Shown here in pieces: positions 1 to 23,553 of a stretch of 64,000 nucleotides of DNA. Source of the DNA: a virus. A program made the translations under genes and the position numbers. Position 1 is the first letter of the stretch, and every line of letters begins with the position of its first letter. The notes under the pieces were generated by a model. The model made no database searches. It worked only from the letters and a program-made list of their open reading frames with translations, and was not told the origin of the DNA. The stretch lies in IMG/VR virus record IMGVR_UViG_3300046516_001541, positions 1 through 64,000 of that record, one strand, 5' to 3'.

Positions 1-15
1 TGGCTTTGTTGTCAT
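1..15 (-). CDS. First codons of a gene running off the left edge
   Basis: An ATG at 15-13 overlaps the TGA (14-12) of the 43-codon gene upstream in the ATGA arrangement used throughout this arm. Only five codons (MTTKP) lie in the window, so no function can be given. The evidence is the coupling pattern alone. Confidence 0.4.
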
Positions 16-143
16 GGATAGCGCCTCCCATGTCGACCGAGGCGAAGACTCGTCAACCATTGAGCGCGCGTGCGTGCGCGTTCCCGCAGGATCTCGTTCC
101 ACGATGGACGATGTCTCCAATGGGCATTACCGGTGTCTCCCAT
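12..143 (-). CDS. Small basic protein, 43 aa, unknown
   Basis: The ORF begins with ATG at 143, about 9 nt after an AGAGGA Shine-Dalgarno sequence, and ends in a TGA that overlaps the next ATG at 15. The peptide is rich in Arg, Trp and His (starts MGDTGNAHWRHRPSW) and has no membrane segment. It follows the Fn3-like gene by 33 nt in the same unit driven from the promoter at 791-818. I do not recognise it. The ribosome-binding site plus the ATGA coupling are the reasons to call it. Confidence 0.5.
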   Translation of the reverse strand: MGDTGNAHWRHRPSWNEILRERARTRAQWLTSLRLGRHGRRYP

Positions 144-176
144 GATTTGATGTCCTCTATTTCGGAAAGATACTGA

Positions 177-431
177 TCAGACGCTGGCAGACAGCGCGCT
201 CTCGACGCCGTCCGACTGGTAGCTGGTGACGCGGTAATACCAGCGTCCGCCCCCATCGATGAGGGTGACATACAGATCCGTTTTGTTCGGATCCGGAATC
301 TCTGCTACCAGACCCATGACATGAGCATATGGTGATCGAGCGCGATAGAGTCGATAACCGGCGATGTCAGTCATTGGCGAGCCGTCCGTGCGCAGAACAG
401 GACGATCCCAACGCAAGGTTCCTGCCATCAT
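177..431 (-). CDS. Small Fn3-like domain protein, 84 aa
   Basis: The start ATG (431) overlaps the TGA of the upstream secreted-protein gene (ATGATGG), so the two are translationally coupled. The whole protein looks like one fibronectin-III-type beta-sandwich: a tryptophan and DG loop near the N-terminus (RWDRPVLRTDG), the DIAGYRLYRA strand, then WYYRVTSYQSDGVES, which matches the usual Y-x-V-x-A/S-x-D/N-x-x-G end of an Fn3 fold. It has no signal peptide of its own. A second Fn3-like protein lies on the other strand at 5638-6372. Role unknown; adhesion or binding is only an inference. Confidence 0.6.
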   Translation of the reverse strand: MMAGTLRWDRPVLRTDGSPMTDIAGYRLYRARSPYAHVMGLVAEIPDPNKTDLYVTLIDGGGRWYYRVTSYQSDGVESALSASV

Positions 432-760
432 TTCGGAAATACCGCGAGCCGCGGCAGCGAGTCTCGATCGAGGAAACGCTCCATACTGATGTGAGCGCAG
501 CCTTCGACCTTGAATTTCTGGCCTTTCGGCGCCGGACAGATGGTGACCTCTTTGCCGTCGCGGGCCCAACAACTGGCTTGATAACCGACGCTGATGAAAT
601 AGGCATTCTTCCAGCCGTATTGCTCGACGGCCTTGCACGTGCCGGTCGCGACGTCGCTCAGCACGTACATCACGGGACCGGTGTCGTACACCGCGAAGAT
701 GCGAGCCTGGGCGGCGATGGGCAGGAGGGCCGCGGCGGCGAAGACGACAAGACGTTTCAT
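428..760 (-). CDS. Secreted small protein, 110 aa
   Basis: The N-terminus MKRLVVFAAAALLPIAAQA is a clear Sec signal peptide with an AxA-type cleavage site after about residue 19. The mature part of about 90 residues has four cysteines, suggesting periplasmic disulphides, and no lipobox. It is the first gene after the operator-promoter at 791-818 and overlaps the Fn3-like gene by 4 nt. I do not recognise a family. Export by a phage gene suggests a role at the cell envelope, which is inference. Confidence 0.65.
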   Translation of the reverse strand: MKRLVVFAAAALLPIAAQARIFAVYDTGPVMYVLSDVATGTCKAVEQYGWKNAYFISVGYQASCWARDGKEVTICPAPKGQKFKVEGCAHISMERFLDRDSLPRLAVFPK

Positions 761-790
761 GACAGAGGTTCCTTGGTAGCAATAGAGCGC

Positions 791-818
791 ATTCTACGCA
801 TTACTGCGTAGATAACAA
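791..818 (-). promoter_or_regulatory. Promoter with palindromic operator in its spacer (copy 1)
   Basis: Read on the minus strand: -35 TTGTTA (818-813), 16-bp spacer, -10 TAGAAT (796-791). The perfect inverted repeat TACGCA-TTAC-TGCGTA (795-810) fills the spacer and reaches into the -10. It sits 35 nt before the gene at 760. Four more sites with the same geometry lie at 2031, 2831, 3142 and 3916. Confidence 0.75.
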
Positions 819-823
819 GTGCG

Positions 824-1183
824 CTATTTCACGGATTCGAAGGTGCCACTTGGATCATTTGCGAAAGCGACTGCGGACTCACGAGCCTTCTGCCGATCGT
901 CACCGATCCGACGCCGCAAGCCTTCGATATGGAGGCTATCCAGGCGGTACTTGCCGGCCTGCCGAAAGTTGTTCACGCGATACCAGAATTTGTGCACGCT
1001 ATCCGTCATTTTGTGGCACATCCTCCACACAGTGACGCCGCCTTCGAGCGCCGACAGTTCGGCGCACGCGCTGGCCAAATTCCCTTGAGCCTGCTCAATC
1101 AGCATCAGGGCGCGGTCGACGCGCATTTTCGCGGCTGCCTTGAGTTGCTCGGGTGTCAATACAACTTGAGTTGAATCGTTCAA
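824..1183 (-). CDS. Hypothetical protein, about 119 aa
   Basis: An ORF of balanced, mostly helical composition. I prefer the TTG at 1183: it overlaps the previous TGA as TTGA and has AGGAGAG about 6 nt upstream. An ATG at 1198 would extend it by five residues but has no ribosome-binding site. It is the last gene of the unit read from the promoter at 2031-2058 and ends just before the next promoter. No family recognised. Confidence 0.6.
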   Translation of the reverse strand: MNDSTQVVLTPEQLKAAAKMRVDRALMLIEQAQGNLASACAELSALEGGVTVWRMCHKMTDSVHKFWYRVNNFRQAGKYRLDSLHIEGLRRRIGDDRQKARESAVAFANDPSGTFESVK

Positions 1184-1377
1184 AATTCTCTCCTGCATTT
1201 GGCTATCGCGCGTTCAGCGGCGTTGATGCCGCGTTGACCGCCTAGGTAACTACGGGCCGCGGCTTTGTCGTGCGCCAGACCTTCAAAACCTTCGCTCGCA
1301 CAAGCGATCAAGGCTTTCAGTTCGGCTGCAGTCAACTTGATCAACTTTGAGCGCATACGATTCATCGTATCGTTCAC
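1180..1377 (-). CDS. Hypothetical protein, 65 aa
   Basis: Starts at a GTG (1377) overlapping the TGA of the zinc-ribbon gene (GTGA). The peptide is basic and helical (KLTAAELKALIACASEGFEG early on). An internal ATG 12 nt downstream is an alternative start. Unknown function within a chain of overlapping genes. Confidence 0.55.
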   Translation of the reverse strand: MNDTMNRMRSKLIKLTAAELKALIACASEGFEGLAHDKAAARSYLGGQRGINAAERAIAKCRREF

Positions 1378-1580
1378 AAACCTCTTCCATGTTTCCAGGG
1401 TGTGCTATCTGCACGGCACCACGGGCATTGCGTGATGACAGCACCGTTGCAGCGGATCAGATTGTTGATCTGCGGATACGATGTGCCGCAAGTAACACAC
1501 GTATGATGAATGTCAGGTCCCGCTACGCCGAGCCGAAGTCCCCAGCCCGACTGCAACATCAATTGTCCGGCGATATTCAT
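1374..1580 (-). CDS. Zinc-ribbon miniprotein, 68 aa
   Basis: Start ATG (1580) overlaps the TGA of the 59-aa gene upstream. Residues about 28-58 hold two pairs of cysteines, CVTCG and CPWC, about 25 residues apart: a classic four-Cys zinc ribbon. Nothing else is recognisable. One of many such proteins in this window; a nucleic-acid or protein adaptor role is inference. Confidence 0.6.
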   Translation of the reverse strand: MNIAGQLMLQSGWGLRLGVAGPDIHHTCVTCGTSYPQINNLIRCNGAVITQCPWCRADSTPWKHGRGL

Positions 1581-1756
1581 CGAATGGCACCGTTGGTGGC
1601 GTCGATCGCGGCGTAAAGGAACGCCTGATAGCGAGCGATCCAAATCCGGCAGAGGTCGCGGCGCTCCGCGTTTTTCTCGCGAATCGCGCGGGTCAACTCG
1701 TCGATCCAGTAGTTGAGACTGGCCTGCAGCGAAACAATTGTGGGTAGCGCGTGCAT
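1577..1756 (-). CDS. Hypothetical protein, 59 aa
   Basis: Found by following the overlap chain: ATG at 1756 overlaps the preceding stop (TGATG) and its own TGA overlaps the next ATG (ATGA at 1577-1580). The sequence begins MHALPTIVSLQASLNYW and is a likely helical hairpin rich in Arg and Trp (TRAIREKNAERRDLCRIW). No family recognised. Confidence 0.55.
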   Translation of the reverse strand: MHALPTIVSLQASLNYWIDELTRAIREKNAERRDLCRIWIARYQAFLYAAIDATNGAIR

Positions 1757-2001
1757 CAGCCGGCCTGCCGGCGGAACTGGTAGGTCGACTCGATCGGCAT
1801 CGGGGCTGCGAAGACCAGCGCCGCAATCAGGTCACTCTTGCGACCGTGGGAGGCAGCGCGCGCGGCAATCGCGGCTTTCACTTCGAGGTCCGCAGCGCGC
1901 TGGGACAATGCCATCTGCACAATGGGATCATTGGCGATACCCTGGCAGGCTGTGGCGTGGGCCGCGGCTCGGGACTGGACGAATTCTTGCTCGGTCATCA
2001 T
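1756..2001 (-). CDS. Hypothetical protein, 81 aa
   Basis: First gene after the promoter at 2031-2058. The start is the ATG at 2001, with GGAG nine nt upstream; a second ATG follows at once (MMTEQEF). The open frame reaches back to 2082, but the operator lies inside that extension, so a longer start is excluded. The protein is Ala-rich and helical. Function unknown. Confidence 0.6.
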   Translation of the reverse strand: MMTEQEFVQSRAAAHATACQGIANDPIVQMALSQRAADLEVKAAIAARAASHGRKSDLIAALVFAAPMPIESTYQFRRQAG

Positions 2002-2030
2002 TGCGTTCGACTCCGTATTCAGTGATGAGG

Positions 2031-2058
2031 AGTCTACGCAAATCTGCGGATTAGTGAA
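2031..2058 (-). promoter_or_regulatory. Promoter with operator in its spacer (copy 2)
   Basis: Minus strand: -35 TTCACT, 16-bp spacer, -10 TAGACT. The operator is TACGCA-AATC-TGCGGA (2035-2050), one mismatch from a perfect palindrome, and the -35 is the poorest of the five. It drives the overlapping genes from 2001 to 824. Confidence 0.65.
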
Positions 2059-2075
2059 GTGATGGAGATCACAAA

Positions 2076-2276
2076 TCAGCACGGGAGTGCCTTCCCGACC
2101 TCGATCGCCTTGTCGACCGCTGCTTCGCCGACGATTGCATACTTTGCAAGCGCATCGTAATCACCCTCCAACAGTTGATAACCGGAATGGACGGCAAATT
2201 CGTCAAAAATTTGACGTTTGATCACAAGATTGTGGCCTTCATTTTCGGTTATGAACCAAGCTCCGTACGTTTTCAT
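2076..2276 (-). CDS. Hypothetical protein, 66 aa
   Basis: ATG at 2276 overlaps the stop of the Cys-rich gene upstream. Sequence starts MKTYGAWFITENEGHN and is mildly acidic and soluble. Last gene of the unit read from the promoter at 2831-2858. No family recognised. Confidence 0.6.
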   Translation of the reverse strand: MKTYGAWFITENEGHNLVIKRQIFDEFAVHSGYQLLEGDYDALAKYAIVGEAAVDKAIEVGKALPC

Positions 2277-2590
2277 AAGTTGGATCCGGCTCCGTGATTC
2301 TTACCGCCGCACGAGCATTCGCAGTTGTGGCCTTTGGCGTTCAGGCAACGCGCGTCACACTTGTGCAGCGACGGGTTTTTCTTGAAGTAGATGACGCGGT
2401 CGACCGGCTGCGAACCGGTACCGTCGAATTTGTAGGGCACGTCAGCCGCGAAGCCGATCAGCTTGCTGAAACTGTCATCGCGCAGACCTTTGACGCCTGG
2501 AAACAGCGCGGCAAAACGTTCGTTGCGGACCGTCGCGCGGCGCAGCTCGGTGCCATCGGCGGCGAAGTAGATTGTGCGTGCGGTGGCCAT
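2273..2590 (-). CDS. Protein with C-terminal cysteine cluster, 105 aa
   Basis: About 75 residues of ordinary soluble sequence are followed by a dense Cys/His cluster near the C-terminus (KCDARCLNAKGHNCECSCGG), enough ligands for one or two metal ions. It begins only 3 nt after the previous gene ends. I do not recognise the family; metal binding is inferred from residue spacing. Confidence 0.6.
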   Translation of the reverse strand: MATARTIYFAADGTELRRATVRNERFAALFPGVKGLRDDSFSKLIGFAADVPYKFDGTGSQPVDRVIYFKKNPSLHKCDARCLNAKGHNCECSCGGKNHGAGSNL

Positions 2591-2593
2591 GTT

Positions 2594-2788
2594 CTACAGC
2601 CGTCCTACTTTGTGGGACGGCATACCGCCATCAATCTGAGGCACTACCAACACGTTGCTGATGCCAGCCTTGCGATCAGCGATTTCCTTCACCATTACAT
2701 CGTTACCGTTGCCTTCGGTCACAAAGGCTTCAAGTTGGGCCAGCGTGTAACTGGGATACTTGCGATTCGATTTGTGTGCTGCGTCCAT
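2594..2788 (-). CDS. Hypothetical protein, 64 aa
   Basis: First gene after the promoter at 2831-2858, with a purine-rich GGAAAAAACGAAG leader before the ATG at 2788. Starts MDAAHKSNRKYPSYTLAQLE. A middle segment (LEAFVTEGNGNDVMVKEI) recalls small phage proteins with a short helix-turn-helix-like region, but this is too weak to assign. Confidence 0.6.
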   Translation of the reverse strand: MDAAHKSNRKYPSYTLAQLEAFVTEGNGNDVMVKEIADRKAGISNVLVVPQIDGGMPSHKVGRL

Positions 2789-2830
2789 CTTCGTTTTTTC
2801 CGGTTTCCGTTGCGTGATTCAGTGATTTGT

Positions 2831-2858
2831 ATTCTACGCAGTTCTGCGTAGACCGCAA
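2831..2858 (-). promoter_or_regulatory. Promoter with palindromic operator in its spacer (copy 3)
   Basis: Minus strand: -35 TTGCGG (2858-2853), 16-bp spacer, -10 TAGAAT (2836-2831). Perfect inverted repeat TACGCA-GTTC-TGCGTA at 2835-2850. Drives the genes from 2788 to 2076. Confidence 0.7.
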
Positions 2859-2875
2859 ATGAACGAAGTCACAGT

Positions 2876-3106
2876 TCACATCAAAACGTACCGAGACATG
2901 GAATTCTGCTCGACGTCCTGCCACGCGCGGACCGCAGCCATCCATGCCGCGTGAAACTCCATATACGAATCGCCAACGCAATCCGGATCGGTCGTAGCGA
3001 AGTCCCAGGTAGCCTTCGCGAAGGCAATGGACTTGTCGGCTTCGACCATGCGAGCTGCTTTCTGGCGGCGGATGCGGCGAATGATCTTCTCGGCTGCGGT
3101 CATCAT
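2876..3106 (-). CDS. Hypothetical protein, 76 aa
   Basis: The start is set at the ATG pair (MMTAAEK, 3106). A GTG at 3118 is possible, but it lies closer to the predicted transcription start of the promoter at 3142-3169. The N-terminal third is strongly basic (IIRRIRRQKAARM), the rest neutral with several Trp. Function unknown. Confidence 0.6.
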   Translation of the reverse strand: MMTAAEKIIRRIRRQKAARMVEADKSIAFAKATWDFATTDPDCVGDSYMEFHAAWMAAVRAWQDVEQNSMSRYVLM

Positions 3107-3141
3107 GGTCGGTCTCACTCAATGCGTTGTCGTTGAGGAGC

Positions 3142-3169
3142 AGTATACGCAAATTTGCGTAGATAACAA
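3142..3169 (-). promoter_or_regulatory. Promoter with palindromic operator in its spacer (copy 4)
   Basis: Minus strand: -35 TTGTTA (3169-3164), 16-bp spacer, -10 TATACT (3147-3142), the best -10 of the set. Perfect inverted repeat TACGCA-AATT-TGCGTA at 3146-3161. Like copies 1 and 5, the -35 is preceded by a conserved CGCTTGTTAT-like run. Confidence 0.75.
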
Positions 3170-3179
3170 GCGTTCCAGT

Positions 3180-3551
3180 TCACAGTTCCGATTGCGGCAT
3201 AGAGGCTCCGCTCGGTTGCTCTTCGGCGCCTGCGATGGGATCAATTTGATAACCGGACAAATCAACTCCTTGCGCCAGATCCGGGAATAGCCGGACTGCC
3301 TGTATTGCGCATGTACCGCCCTCCTCTTCCTGCGCATCAGCGGGAACGGTAGCCCATGCGTTGCTACCTGACTCCTGAAAATGATCCAGGGCCATGCGCA
3401 TAGCTTTTTGACGGCTCGTGGGCAAAGCTTTGTCGAAATTGACTCTGTAATAGATCATCGCGTTGATGATGTCGAAGATGTCGATATGAGCCGGTACGCG
3501 GAGGGTGCACCGATAGAGACCGTCTTTACGCTTCGTTGGTTTGATGCGCAT
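3180..3551 (-). CDS. Hypothetical protein, 123 aa
   Basis: I take the ATG at 3551 (MRIKPTKRKDGLYRCTLRVP), which follows the previous stop at 3577 by 25 nt. The frame is open further upstream, but that part overlaps the preceding gene. The N-terminal 40 residues resemble a small beta-rich domain; the C-terminal third is acidic and Gly/Pro-rich, probably disordered. Unknown function. Confidence 0.55.
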   Translation of the reverse strand: MRIKPTKRKDGLYRCTLRVPAHIDIFDIINAMIYYRVNFDKALPTSRQKAMRMALDHFQESGSNAWATVPADAQEEEGGTCAIQAVRLFPDLAQGVDLSGYQIDPIAGAEEQPSGASMPQSEL

Positions 3552-3576
3552 GATTTGCAAATAGGCTAACTGCGAC

Positions 3577-3777
3577 TCATAACGTCTTCCAACGCCTGGA
3601 CAGGTCGATGATTTCAACATCGAACTGGATAGCCACTATTTCGATATCGGCATCTGTAACTGGATTAGCGGCGCTTCGGTTGAGCAAATCCCTTAGCGCA
3701 TCAATCAACTTGTATTGATATGCGAGCCGTTTATCAGCGGCTAACCGTTGCCGAGCACTTTTGTGGGTGGCAGCCAT
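3577..3777 (-). CDS. Hypothetical protein, 66 aa
   Basis: ATG at 3777 follows the stop of the 31-aa gene by 7 nt. Starts MAATHKSARQRLAADKRLAY: basic and helical at the N-terminus, acidic near the C-terminus (DADIEIVAIQFDVEIIDLS). Second gene of the unit read from the promoter at 3916-3943. No family recognised. Confidence 0.6.
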   Translation of the reverse strand: MAATHKSARQRLAADKRLAYQYKLIDALRDLLNRSAANPVTDADIEIVAIQFDVEIIDLSRRWKTL

Positions 3778-3784
3778 TGGCCCA

Positions 3785-3880
3785 TCACTTCCACAACAGC
3801 CGGCTGTAGGTCGGCAGGCGCGCGGCCAGGCGCGCTTCCATGACGGCAGCGATCAGAGAGATACGAATTTCAGTGCTCAT
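3785..3880 (-). CDS. Very small protein, 31 aa
   Basis: First ORF downstream of the operator-promoter at 3916-3943: ATG at 3880, stop at 3785. The peptide begins MSTEIRISLIAAVMEARL and looks like a short amphipathic helix with a basic end. The ribosome-binding site is weak (GGGAAC about 9 nt upstream). Position right behind a promoter and tight spacing to the next gene are the evidence. Confidence 0.45.
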   Translation of the reverse strand: MSTEIRISLIAAVMEARLAARLPTYSRLLWK

Positions 3881-3915
3881 GTCGGCGGTTCCCAAGTTGA
3901 TTTAACGTGGGGTCA

Positions 3916-3943
3916 ATTCTACGCAAATCTGCGTATATAACAA
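3916..3943 (-). promoter_or_regulatory. Promoter with palindromic operator in its spacer (copy 5)
   Basis: Minus strand: -35 TTGTTA (3943-3938), 16-bp spacer, -10 TAGAAT (3921-3916). Perfect inverted repeat TACGCA-AATC-TGCGTA at 3920-3935. It lies directly behind the stop of the HTH gene, so the regulator gene and the first operator are adjacent. Confidence 0.75.
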
Positions 3944-3961
3944 GCGAACCACTTCACAGTT

Positions 3962-4375
3962 CTAACCGGCTATTTGCACAGCTTCCGCGAAAGTCTCCGG
4001 CCGCTGGGCTTCCGGATCCAATGCCTGGATGATCTGCTTGAGCAGCAAACAGGGATCGATCTCCATTCCATCGCATATTTTGCAGTAAAGCAGGACCGAT
4101 GGGGCTCGTTCACCACGCTCGACTTTGTAAATTGAACCCTGATGTACGCCAGCCAGCCTAGCCAATCCAGGGCGGCTCAATTTCTTGTCTTTCCGCGCGG
4201 TCTGCATGACTCGACCAACAATTTTGCTCTGCACTCTTTTGACCGGGTCTCGGCTCATTCGCATTTGGATGAATTCCGCATAGATGAAATAGACATGGCG
4301 CGCGATGTAGCCAATCGAGACCGAACGACACCGACTGGCGTAGTGCTCCAAACAGGCAGCCGGGGTGACTGCCAC
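3962..4375 (-). CDS. XRE/Cro-type HTH regulator, 137 aa
   Basis: Residues about 57-118 form an XRE-type helix-turn-helix domain: LSRPGLARLAGVHQGSIYKV holds helices 2 and 3, followed by the typical ERGERAPS turn. About 55 residues precede the domain. I keep the GTG start at 4375 because AGGAG lies nine nt upstream; an internal ATG (MRMSRDPVKR) is the alternative and would give a compact repressor. It follows csrA in one unit and is the only regulator next to the five TACGCA operators, so it is the natural candidate to bind them. That link is inference. Confidence 0.75.
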   Translation of the reverse strand: MAVTPAACLEHYASRCRSVSIGYIARHVYFIYAEFIQMRMSRDPVKRVQSKIVGRVMQTARKDKKLSRPGLARLAGVHQGSIYKVERGERAPSVLLYCKICDGMEIDPCLLLKQIIQALDPEAQRPETFAEAVQIAG

Positions 4376-4419
4376 GGTTCGCGTCTCCTCTCTACATCGC
4401 CGCCAAAGTTGAAATAGGT

Positions 4420-4635
4420 CTAACCGGACGCCGCGGACTCGGTCGGGCCGTCAGATGACGCCAATGCTTCCTGTTCTGCCTGAATGCGCAGGAAGATTTC
4501 CTCCCGGTGGACGGCTACATTCTGGGGCGCCGTGATGCCGATGCGCACTTGATTGCCTTTCACTCCCAGCACCATGACGCTGACGTCTGGCCCAATTCTC
4601 AGTATCTCGCCGACTCTTCTCGTCAAGATGAGCAT
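4420..4635 (-). CDS. csrA: CsrA/RsmA-family carbon storage regulator
   Basis: 71 residues, the usual CsrA size. The hallmark [15 protein letters not shown] start, the [13 protein letters not shown] beta strands and the [10 protein letters not shown] helix are all present, including Arg44 of the RNA-binding VHREE motif. CsrA dimers bind GGA motifs in RNA hairpin loops and change translation or stability of mRNAs. The C-terminal tail is short and Ser/Glu-rich. The ribosome-binding site AGGGAA lies 6-7 nt before the ATG. In a phage unit with an HTH regulator it could tune phage or host mRNAs. Family assignment is firm; target RNAs are unknown. Confidence 0.95.
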
Positions 4636-4766
4636 GTTTGTTCCCTTCCATAGTGGATAACAGTCAGCCCGACTTAATCATATTTGATGTAGCTCGTCAA
4701 CCAGATTGCATGATTTAACAGTAACGGTCCGACCGGGAACCTTCGTCTATTCGTGACGGATTAGAT
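4636..4766. promoter_or_regulatory. Divergent control region between csrA and the plus-strand operon
   Basis: Minus-strand genes leave to the left and plus-strand genes to the right, so at least two promoters must lie here. Visible elements: an imperfect inverted repeat TTGATG-tagct-CGTCAA (4684-4700), whose minus-strand copy reads TTGACG like a -35, and a copy of the TCGTGACGG motif at 4751-4759, the same element found before late genes. No convincing complete sigma-70 promoter was identified. Confidence 0.5.
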
Positions 4767-4966
4767 TGTGTCTCATTCTTGAGACTGGCAGACTCGCCAT
4801 CCAGCGCGCACATCATCACGACTCTAAGGTTTTCAAGCGCAGCAGCACAAAAACCTTTCCCGGGCGGCCGACATTGGTCTATTCGAACCTCATCGAAGGT
4901 AGTTCGACTCCTTTCTTCCGATGCGACCGATTGCTCGCCACCATCAGCGTCAATCAGTGCAGTTCC

Positions 4967-23355: not shown

Positions 23356-23553
23356 TTAGTTCCCAGACAGAAACCCTTCAGCCTGTTCGATATTGATTAT
23401 CCACAAAACAGCGTATTCCACAAGCGCCGGAATTGGCACGACTCCGGTCTCATACCGGAATAGGTCAAATACATCGATTTGCAGACGGGCCGCCAGTTCG
23501 GCGTGCGTCGATTTAGAATCCGCAAGCAACATGCGGAATTCGCTGGCGATCAT
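23356..23553 (-). CDS. Cro/C1-like HTH-type protein, 65 aa
   Basis: ATG 23553 follows GAGG and the stop of the TM peptide by a few bases. The segment HAELAARLQIDVFDLFRYET followed by GVVPIPALVEYAVLWI has the spacing of a small XRE-like helix-turn-helix protein. Possibly a second regulator of the phage; weak assignment. Confidence 0.5.
   Translation of the reverse strand: MIASEFRMLLADSKSTHAELAARLQIDVFDLFRYETGVVPIPALVEYAVLWIINIEQAEGFLSGN

What the first reader, a model, noticed from the sequence alone, without database searches (positions are those of the whole stretch)
791..3943. Five promoters with the same palindrome filling a 16-bp spacer
At 795-810, 2035-2050, 2835-2850, 3146-3161 and 3920-3935 the palindrome TACGCA-N4-TGCGTA (one copy with one mismatch) lies exactly between a -35 (TTGTTA in three copies) and a TAGAAT/TATACT -10, spacer always 16 bp. 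Each is 18-35 nt past the end of the previous unit and heads one block of overlapping genes. It looks like a regulon with one repressor or activator, the natural candidate being the HTH protein at 3962-4375. A 16-bp spacer is short, so activation by distortion is also possible.
Basis: partly seen in the sequence, partly recalled or inferred. Interest (0 to 1): 0.75.

Follow-up and report, generated by a model that had tools for sequence, protein, structure and literature searches.

The report
Phage promoters with matching operator palindromes
A bacterial virus carries five, in fact six, promoters that each have the same 16-letter palindrome between their two promoter boxes, very likely the landing site of one viral repressor that switches all these genes together; five of them also share a second box that looks like the site of a host activator.

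Summary
TACGCA-N4-TGCGTA occurs at all five stated places (four exact, one with one mismatch). It lies on a minus-strand promoter each time, in a 13-26 nt gap after a stop codon. Forty simulated genomes of the same composition gave no copy, and it is the only repeated 6-N4-6 palindrome in the 80 kb record.

Two things were missed. First, a sixth exact copy lies outside the window at 67,814 of the record, between a divergent methyltransferase operon and an 80-aa Cro/CI-type (HTH_3) gene, again filling a promoter spacer. That protein is a better regulator candidate than the HTH at 3962-4375. Second, all five window promoters share (T/C)GTGA exactly 23 nt upstream of the palindrome. This reads as a CRP-like 16-mer centred at -41.5, the class II activator position. 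The phage has no CRP-type protein.

Best reading: a phage regulon with operators in promoter spacers, shut by one small repressor, possibly activated by a host CRP-type protein. The kind is known (compare SPbeta SPBRE/MrpR). In unrelated phages the same palindrome fills hicAB promoter spacers, so a ribbon-helix-helix binder cannot be excluded.

The parts
795..810 (-). operator palindrome 1 (exact); -35 TTGTTA 818-813, -10 TAGAAT 796-791
2035..2050 (-). operator palindrome 2 (one mismatch, TCCGCA-GATT-TGCGTA); -35 TTCACT 2058-2053, -10 TAGACT 2036-2031
2835..2850 (-). operator palindrome 3 (exact); -35 TTGCGG 2858-2853, -10 TAGAAT 2836-2831
3146..3161 (-). operator palindrome 4 (exact); -35 TTGTTA 3169-3164, -10 TATACT 3147-3142
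3920..3935 (-). operator palindrome 5 (exact); -35 TTGTTA 3943-3938, -10 TAGAAT 3921-3916
818..833 (-). CRP-like 16-mer CGTGA-N6-GCACT centred at -41.5 (3 mismatches to TGTGAN6TCACA); left half lies in the last codons of the preceding gene
2058..2073 (-). CRP-like 16-mer TGTGATCTCCATCACT centred at -41.5 (1 mismatch; one of only two such sites in 80 kb)
2858..2873 (-). CRP-like 16-mer TGTGACTTCGTTCATT centred at -41.5 (2 mismatches)
3169..3184 (-). CRP-like 16-mer TGTGAACTGGAACGCT centred at -41.5 (3 mismatches)
3943..3958 (-). CRP-like 16-mer TGTGAAGTGGTTCGCT centred at -41.5 (2 mismatches)
3180..3880 (-). unit of promoter 5: ORFs 3785-3880, 3577-3777, 3180-3551/3620; no Pfam family for the two scanned
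2876..3118 (-). unit of promoter 4: one small gene, no known Pfam family
2076..2788 (-). unit of promoter 3: ORFs 2594-2788, 2273-2590, 2076-2276
824..2025 (-). unit of promoter 2: overlapping small ORFs ending at 1756, 1577, 1374, 1180 and 824
428..760 (-). unit of promoter 1: 110-aa ORF with a signal-peptide-like start
3962..4375 (-).

Best explanation
These are promoters of a cluster of short minus-strand transcription units (and of a distant methyltransferase operon) in a tailed phage. They share one 16-bp operator set between -35 and -10. A dimeric repressor bound there blocks RNA polymerase at all six promoters at once. The most likely repressor is the 80-aa Cro/CI-type HTH_3 protein encoded at 67869-68111 of the same record. 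Its gene starts beside the sixth operator, with a near-leaderless start and its own -35 just outside the operator, so it could repress the other promoters while leaving its own open or even helped. In the five window promoters a CRP-like box centred at -41.5 may recruit a host CRP-type activator (class II), which would offset the poor -35 boxes. Shown: the sites, their fixed geometry, their restriction to promoters, the neighbouring HTH gene. Inferred: binding, repression, identity of the repressor (about 0.5), CRP activation (about 0.4), transcript starts.
For: Six palindromes in 80 kb, all at promoters in intergenic gaps, none elsewhere at 0-1 mismatch. Arms are nearly invariant while flanks diverge. 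Sites fill TTGTTA/TAGAAT-type spacers, and at copy six TTGACA-17-TACATT, abutting a divergent TTGTCA-17-TAGAAT that ends 8 nt before the HTH_3 gene's ATG. That gene is HTH_3 4.1e-10 and phrog_1468 transcriptional repressor 2.5e-11, and its model is an all-helical HTH fold with 434 Cro, P22 c2, HigA and C-proteins among weak matches. Only two HTH_3 proteins in the record. (T/C)GTGA lies 23 nt upstream of the palindrome in all five; all 5 columns conserved versus 2 of the next six; 0 of 5000 shuffles reach this block score. Copy 2, with no TTGTTA, has the best CRP match (1 mismatch). Palindrome and promoter are also in relative L006.
Against: No binding, transcript or host data. The five modules may share TGTGA by recent duplication rather than function. 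The right half of the CRP-like box fits poorly (GCACT, TCACT, TCATT, ACGCT, TCGCT), and in L006 the box is one base closer to the palindrome (-40.5). Copy six has no CRP-like box. The HTH_3 gene has no ortholog in 32 related records, so its link to the palindrome rests on adjacency alone. In other phages this palindrome is found at hicAB promoters, whose likely binder is a ribbon-helix-helix antitoxin. The structure model rests on a single sequence and the Foldseek E-values are above 0.03.
Confidence: 0.6

Rival explanations
1. The regulator is the HTH_3 protein at 3962-4375, encoded directly upstream of the cluster; it represses or activates the five promoters from its place at the head of the cluster.
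For: It is one of only two HTH_3 proteins in the record, lies directly upstream of promoter 5, and shows similarity to phage RstR and DicA repressor models below their cut-offs.
Against: No palindrome at its own promoter. The sixth copy is 64 kb away, beside the other HTH_3 gene. L006 has the palindrome promoter but no HTH_3 gene in its 10.5 kb.
Confidence: 0.2
2. The binder is neither HTH_3 protein but a small ribbon-helix-helix or other cryptic DNA-binding protein, of the phage or the host.
For: In unrelated phages the palindrome fills the promoter spacer of three hicAB pairs (HicB_lk_antitox 3.7e-15, 1.5e-8, 1.6e-13; L194, L183, L182), and TGCGTA/TACGCA repeats lie near a parA-like gene in L164.
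Against: No RHH_1 or HicB match in the record and only marginal tblastn. In L176 the same palindrome lies at the start of a CI-like HTH_3/S24 repressor gene, so HTH proteins can go with it too. The record is incomplete and tiny RHH proteins are easily missed.
Confidence: 0.25
3. The palindrome acts as an RNA hairpin (terminator or processing site) at the ends of transcription units rather than as a DNA site.
For: It could form a 6-8 bp stem with a tetraloop, and three of five copies fold better than most shuffles (z -3.0, -2.5, -1.6); it lies shortly after stop codons.
Against: No T run follows it and none of the four terminator-like hits falls on a palindrome. Copy 2 breaks a pair, and copy 4 folds no better than shuffles. 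Arms show no compensatory change. The last two bases are always the TA of a -10 box, and copy six lies between divergent genes, not after a gene.
Confidence: 0.05
4. The TGTGA block is not a CRP site: it belongs to a phage-encoded activator or has no function and is shared only because the promoter module was duplicated.
For: The right half of the box is weak in four copies; copy six and L131 lack it at this distance; the five modules are clearly related to each other.
Against: The six bases right after TGTGA and the flanks have diverged while TGTGA has not, its place relative to the stop codon varies from copy to copy so coding cannot explain it, and its centre is exactly at -41.5.
Confidence: 0.5

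Closest known systems
SPbeta repeated element (SPBRE) and its master repressor MrpR (PMC10516654)
   Same: One short motif at many intergenic promoter regions of a phage, bound by one phage repressor that shuts the units together.
   Different: MrpR is a recombinase-derived protein and SPBRE a 15-bp motif; here the motif is a 6-N4-6 palindrome always in the promoter spacer, and the candidate is a small Cro/CI-type HTH.
Mycobacteriophage repressors with stoperators (PMC9283540)
   Same: Repressor sites spread over a phage genome.
   Different: Stoperators are asymmetric sites that also stop elongation away from promoters; here every site is a promoter spacer.
Lambda-type CI/Cro switch (own knowledge)
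   Same: The sixth site lies between a divergent operon and a small HTH regulator gene with a nearly leaderless start.
   Different: One operator, not three; centre about -45.5 to the regulator's own predicted start, not -42; no cleavable C-terminal domain; no tyrosine integrase found in this incomplete record.
Class II CRP-dependent promoters (own knowledge); cAMP-CRP control of phage T1 promoters (PMC6737242)
   Same: TGTGA-N6-TCACA-like box at -41.5 next to a poor -35; precedent for host CRP acting on phage promoters.
   Different: In T1 cAMP-CRP represses pir, dam and recE; here activation is inferred, most boxes have a poor right half, and the host is unknown.
hicAB toxin-antitoxin promoters in other phages (L182, L183, L194)
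   Same: The same palindrome filling a sigma-70 spacer.
   Different: Single copy in the stretches held, in front of a toxin-antitoxin pair; no HicA/HicB here.

Membership tests
Multi-operator phage repressor regulon | Same motif at several promoters, absent from coding DNA | tested here: met
Multi-operator phage repressor regulon | Motif overlaps the promoter core so that binding would block polymerase | tested here: met
   (sequence only)
Multi-operator phage repressor regulon | Phage-encoded DNA-binding protein next to a copy of the motif | tested here: met
   HTH_3 gene at G000 67869-68111 beside copy six
Multi-operator phage repressor regulon | The protein binds the motif and represses | not testable with these tools
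   needs EMSA, footprint, reporter
Class II CRP-dependent promoter | Activator site centred at -41.5 | tested here: met
   all five window promoters for a predicted start 7 nt past the -10; L006 is at -40.5
Class II CRP-dependent promoter | Good match to TGTGA-N6-TCACA | tested here: inconclusive
   1, 2, 2, 3, 3 mismatches
Class II CRP-dependent promoter | CRP-type protein available | tested here: inconclusive
   none in the phage; host unknown, relatives infect gamma- and betaproteobacteria
MerR-type activation by DNA distortion | Overlong 19-20 bp spacer | tested here: not met
   spacer 16 (17 at copy six); a MerR protein was not searched for
hicAB promoter | hicA/hicB downstream or in the genome | tested here: not met
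Intrinsic terminator | G+C-rich stem followed by a T run | tested here: not met

The most novel reading that the evidence does not exclude
Each early promoter is a small two-input gate copied five times: a host CRP-cAMP box at -41.5 turns it on, a phage operator in the spacer turns it off. The phage would thus tie a whole block of early genes to the host's carbon status as well as to its own repressor.
Probability: 0.35. Interest if true: 0.6.

Novelty: new member of a known kind. Interest (0 to 1): 0.45.

Why it matters
It gives a regulon map for a large group of little-studied phages of about 80-95 kb, names a testable repressor and a testable host input, and shows that one palindrome recurs as a spacer operator in unrelated phages. 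If the CRP part holds, it would be a clear case of a phage reading host carbon status at many early promoters at once.

Tried and rejected
Close relatives of the 67.9-kb HTH protein: none in IMG/VR, two weak partial ones in GTDB genomes, partial ones in phages and plasmids, so operator-regulator co-variation could not be tested. Promoter-level patterns (TGTGA-N18-palindrome-NANT; TTGTTATN-palindrome) found nothing else in IMG/VR. The palindrome is not repeated in 32 related records and no other multi-copy palindrome was found in six related genomes. A PWM hit at 23396-23439 lies in coding DNA with a 3-mismatch palindrome and was set aside. Two near-identical IMG/VR contigs with three palindromes each (L158, L160) have them just after tRNA-like sequences and look unrelated. 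A literature search for the motif as a known operator gave nothing relevant. A structure model of the HTH at 3962-4375 was too poor to use. A search for CRP-like sites in the isolated relatives showed no comparable pattern.
Full report
What was checked. The genes of this stretch run on the minus strand, so the promoters read on the minus strand: TTGTTA-16-TAGAAT (copies 1 and 5), TTGTTA-16-TATACT (copy 4), TTGCGG-16-TAGAAT (copy 3) and TTCACT-16-TAGACT (copy 2). The last TA of the palindrome is the first TA of the -10 box. The gap to the preceding stop codon is 13 to 26 nt. In 40 Markov genomes of 80 kb no exact copy arose, and no 6-N4-6 palindrome reached three copies; here one has five exact copies. 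The only three consensus sigma-70 sites of 9/12 or better in 1-4900 are copies 1, 4 and 5; the number alone equals shuffles, the coincidence with the palindromes does not.

The sixth copy. The window is the first 64 kb of an 80,082-base virus record. A further exact copy lies at 67814-67829, between the minus-strand operon with a DNA methyltransferase (phrog_67, 1.6e-69) and a plus-strand gene for an 80-aa HTH_3 protein at 67869-68111. It fills TTGACA-17-TACATT of the minus-strand promoter and abuts TTGTCA-17-TAGAAT of the plus-strand promoter. The predicted start of the plus transcript is 2 nt before the ATG, so the mRNA would be almost leaderless, as for lambda cI from PRM (own knowledge). 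The operator would cover about -53 to -38 of that promoter, outside its core, while it covers the core of the methyltransferase promoter. This is the layout expected of a repressor gene that spares itself (inference).

The upstream element. Aligned without gaps on the palindrome, all five window promoters carry (T/C)GTGA exactly 23 nt before it. All five of these columns are conserved in at least four of five copies, while only two of the next six are; shuffled upstream sequences never reach this block score (0 of 5000). Read as TGTGA-N6-TCACA, the site is centred at -41.5 if transcription starts 7 nt past the -10 box, the class II position for CRP-type activators (own knowledge). Copy 2, which lacks TTGTTA, has the best match (one mismatch) and is one of only two such sites in the 80 kb. 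Right halves are poor in copies 1 and 4. The position of TGTGA relative to the stop codon differs from copy to copy (in copy 1 it lies in the last codons, in copy 4 it overlaps the stop, in the others it follows it), so coding constraint does not explain it. Recent duplication of the module remains a partial explanation. The phage has no cNMP-binding protein, so the activator would be the host's. No host is known; the nearest isolated relatives by large terminase infect Aeromonas, Pseudomonas, Yersinia, Enterobacter, Morganella and Bordetella.

Relatives. Contig L006, the nearest relative found (74% identical terminase), has the same palindrome once at 223-238 in front of a minus-strand gene, with TATAGT as -10 and AGTGA-N6-TCGCT one base nearer. 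No HTH_3 gene lies in its 10.5 kb. Thirty-two further related records have at most stray 1-mismatch copies, and neither the HTH gene nor the ATPase gene behind it is found there. The regulon thus seems particular to this phage and its close kin.

The palindrome elsewhere. A scan of IMG/VR for the palindrome plus a -10 box gave 47 and 43 stretches. Many lie inside genes, but in several unrelated phages it again fills a promoter spacer, with perfect TTGACA in L183, L192/L197 and L194. In L182, L183 and L194 the genes behind it are hicA and hicB (Pfam). In L176 it lies at the start of a CI-like HTH_3/S24 repressor gene with another HTH-like gene on the far side. L164 has TGCGTA/TACGCA repeats near a parA-like gene. 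So the palindrome is a recurring spacer operator, and both HTH and ribbon-helix-helix proteins are possible binders. In the present record no RHH_1 or HicB match was found.

Verdict. Observation confirmed and extended. A regulon with one binder is very likely (about 0.9). Repression is more likely than activation through the palindrome, because it covers the promoter core. The 67.9-kb HTH protein is the best single candidate (about 0.5), the HTH at 3962-4375 is weaker (about 0.2), and an unrecognised binder takes the rest. CRP-type class II activation of the five window promoters is a fair possibility (about 0.4). Nothing here was tested by experiment. The kind of system is known from SPbeta (PMC10516654) and, more loosely, stoperators (PMC9283540, abstract); host CRP acting on phage promoters has a precedent in T1, there as repression (PMC6737242).

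Noticed in passing
window 4420-4635 (-): CsrA-like regulator (PF02599 5.9e-22, phrog_9500 6.9e-29) next to the cluster; its RNA targets were not examined.
   Followed up: no
L005 14011-14241 (-), = G000 78011-78241: 76-aa HTH-like protein between helicase and a divergent exonuclease VIII gene, in the place where related phages (Aeromonas ST4, Pseudomonas Dolphis) have an annotated 'SaPI-like transcriptional repressor'; the gap holds other inverted repeats but not this palindrome.
   Followed up: partly
L182 6053, L183 6478, L194 4724: TACGCA-N4-TGCGTA fills the spacer of hicAB promoters in three phage contigs, which suggests it as a HicB operator type.
   Followed up: partly
L164 9000-9540: Dense TGCGTA/TACGCA repeats on both sides of a small gene next to a parA-like gene and a small possible ParB-like gene; looks like a partition site.
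   Followed up: partly
L158 925, 3274, 4412; L160 1895, 3033, 5382: The same palindrome directly after three tRNA-like sequences in an A+T-rich phage (two near-identical contigs); purpose unknown.
   Followed up: no
L131 1025-1044: Palindrome in TTGATG-16-TAGAAT after a C5 methyltransferase gene in an otherwise unexamined 47.7-kb contig, with TTTGA-N6-TCACA centred near -58.5.
   Followed up: partly
window 23356-23553 (-): Small ORF with HTH-like sequence (ASEFRMLLADSKSTHAELAARLQI) but no Pfam match; contains a 3-mismatch palindrome in coding DNA.
   Followed up: partly
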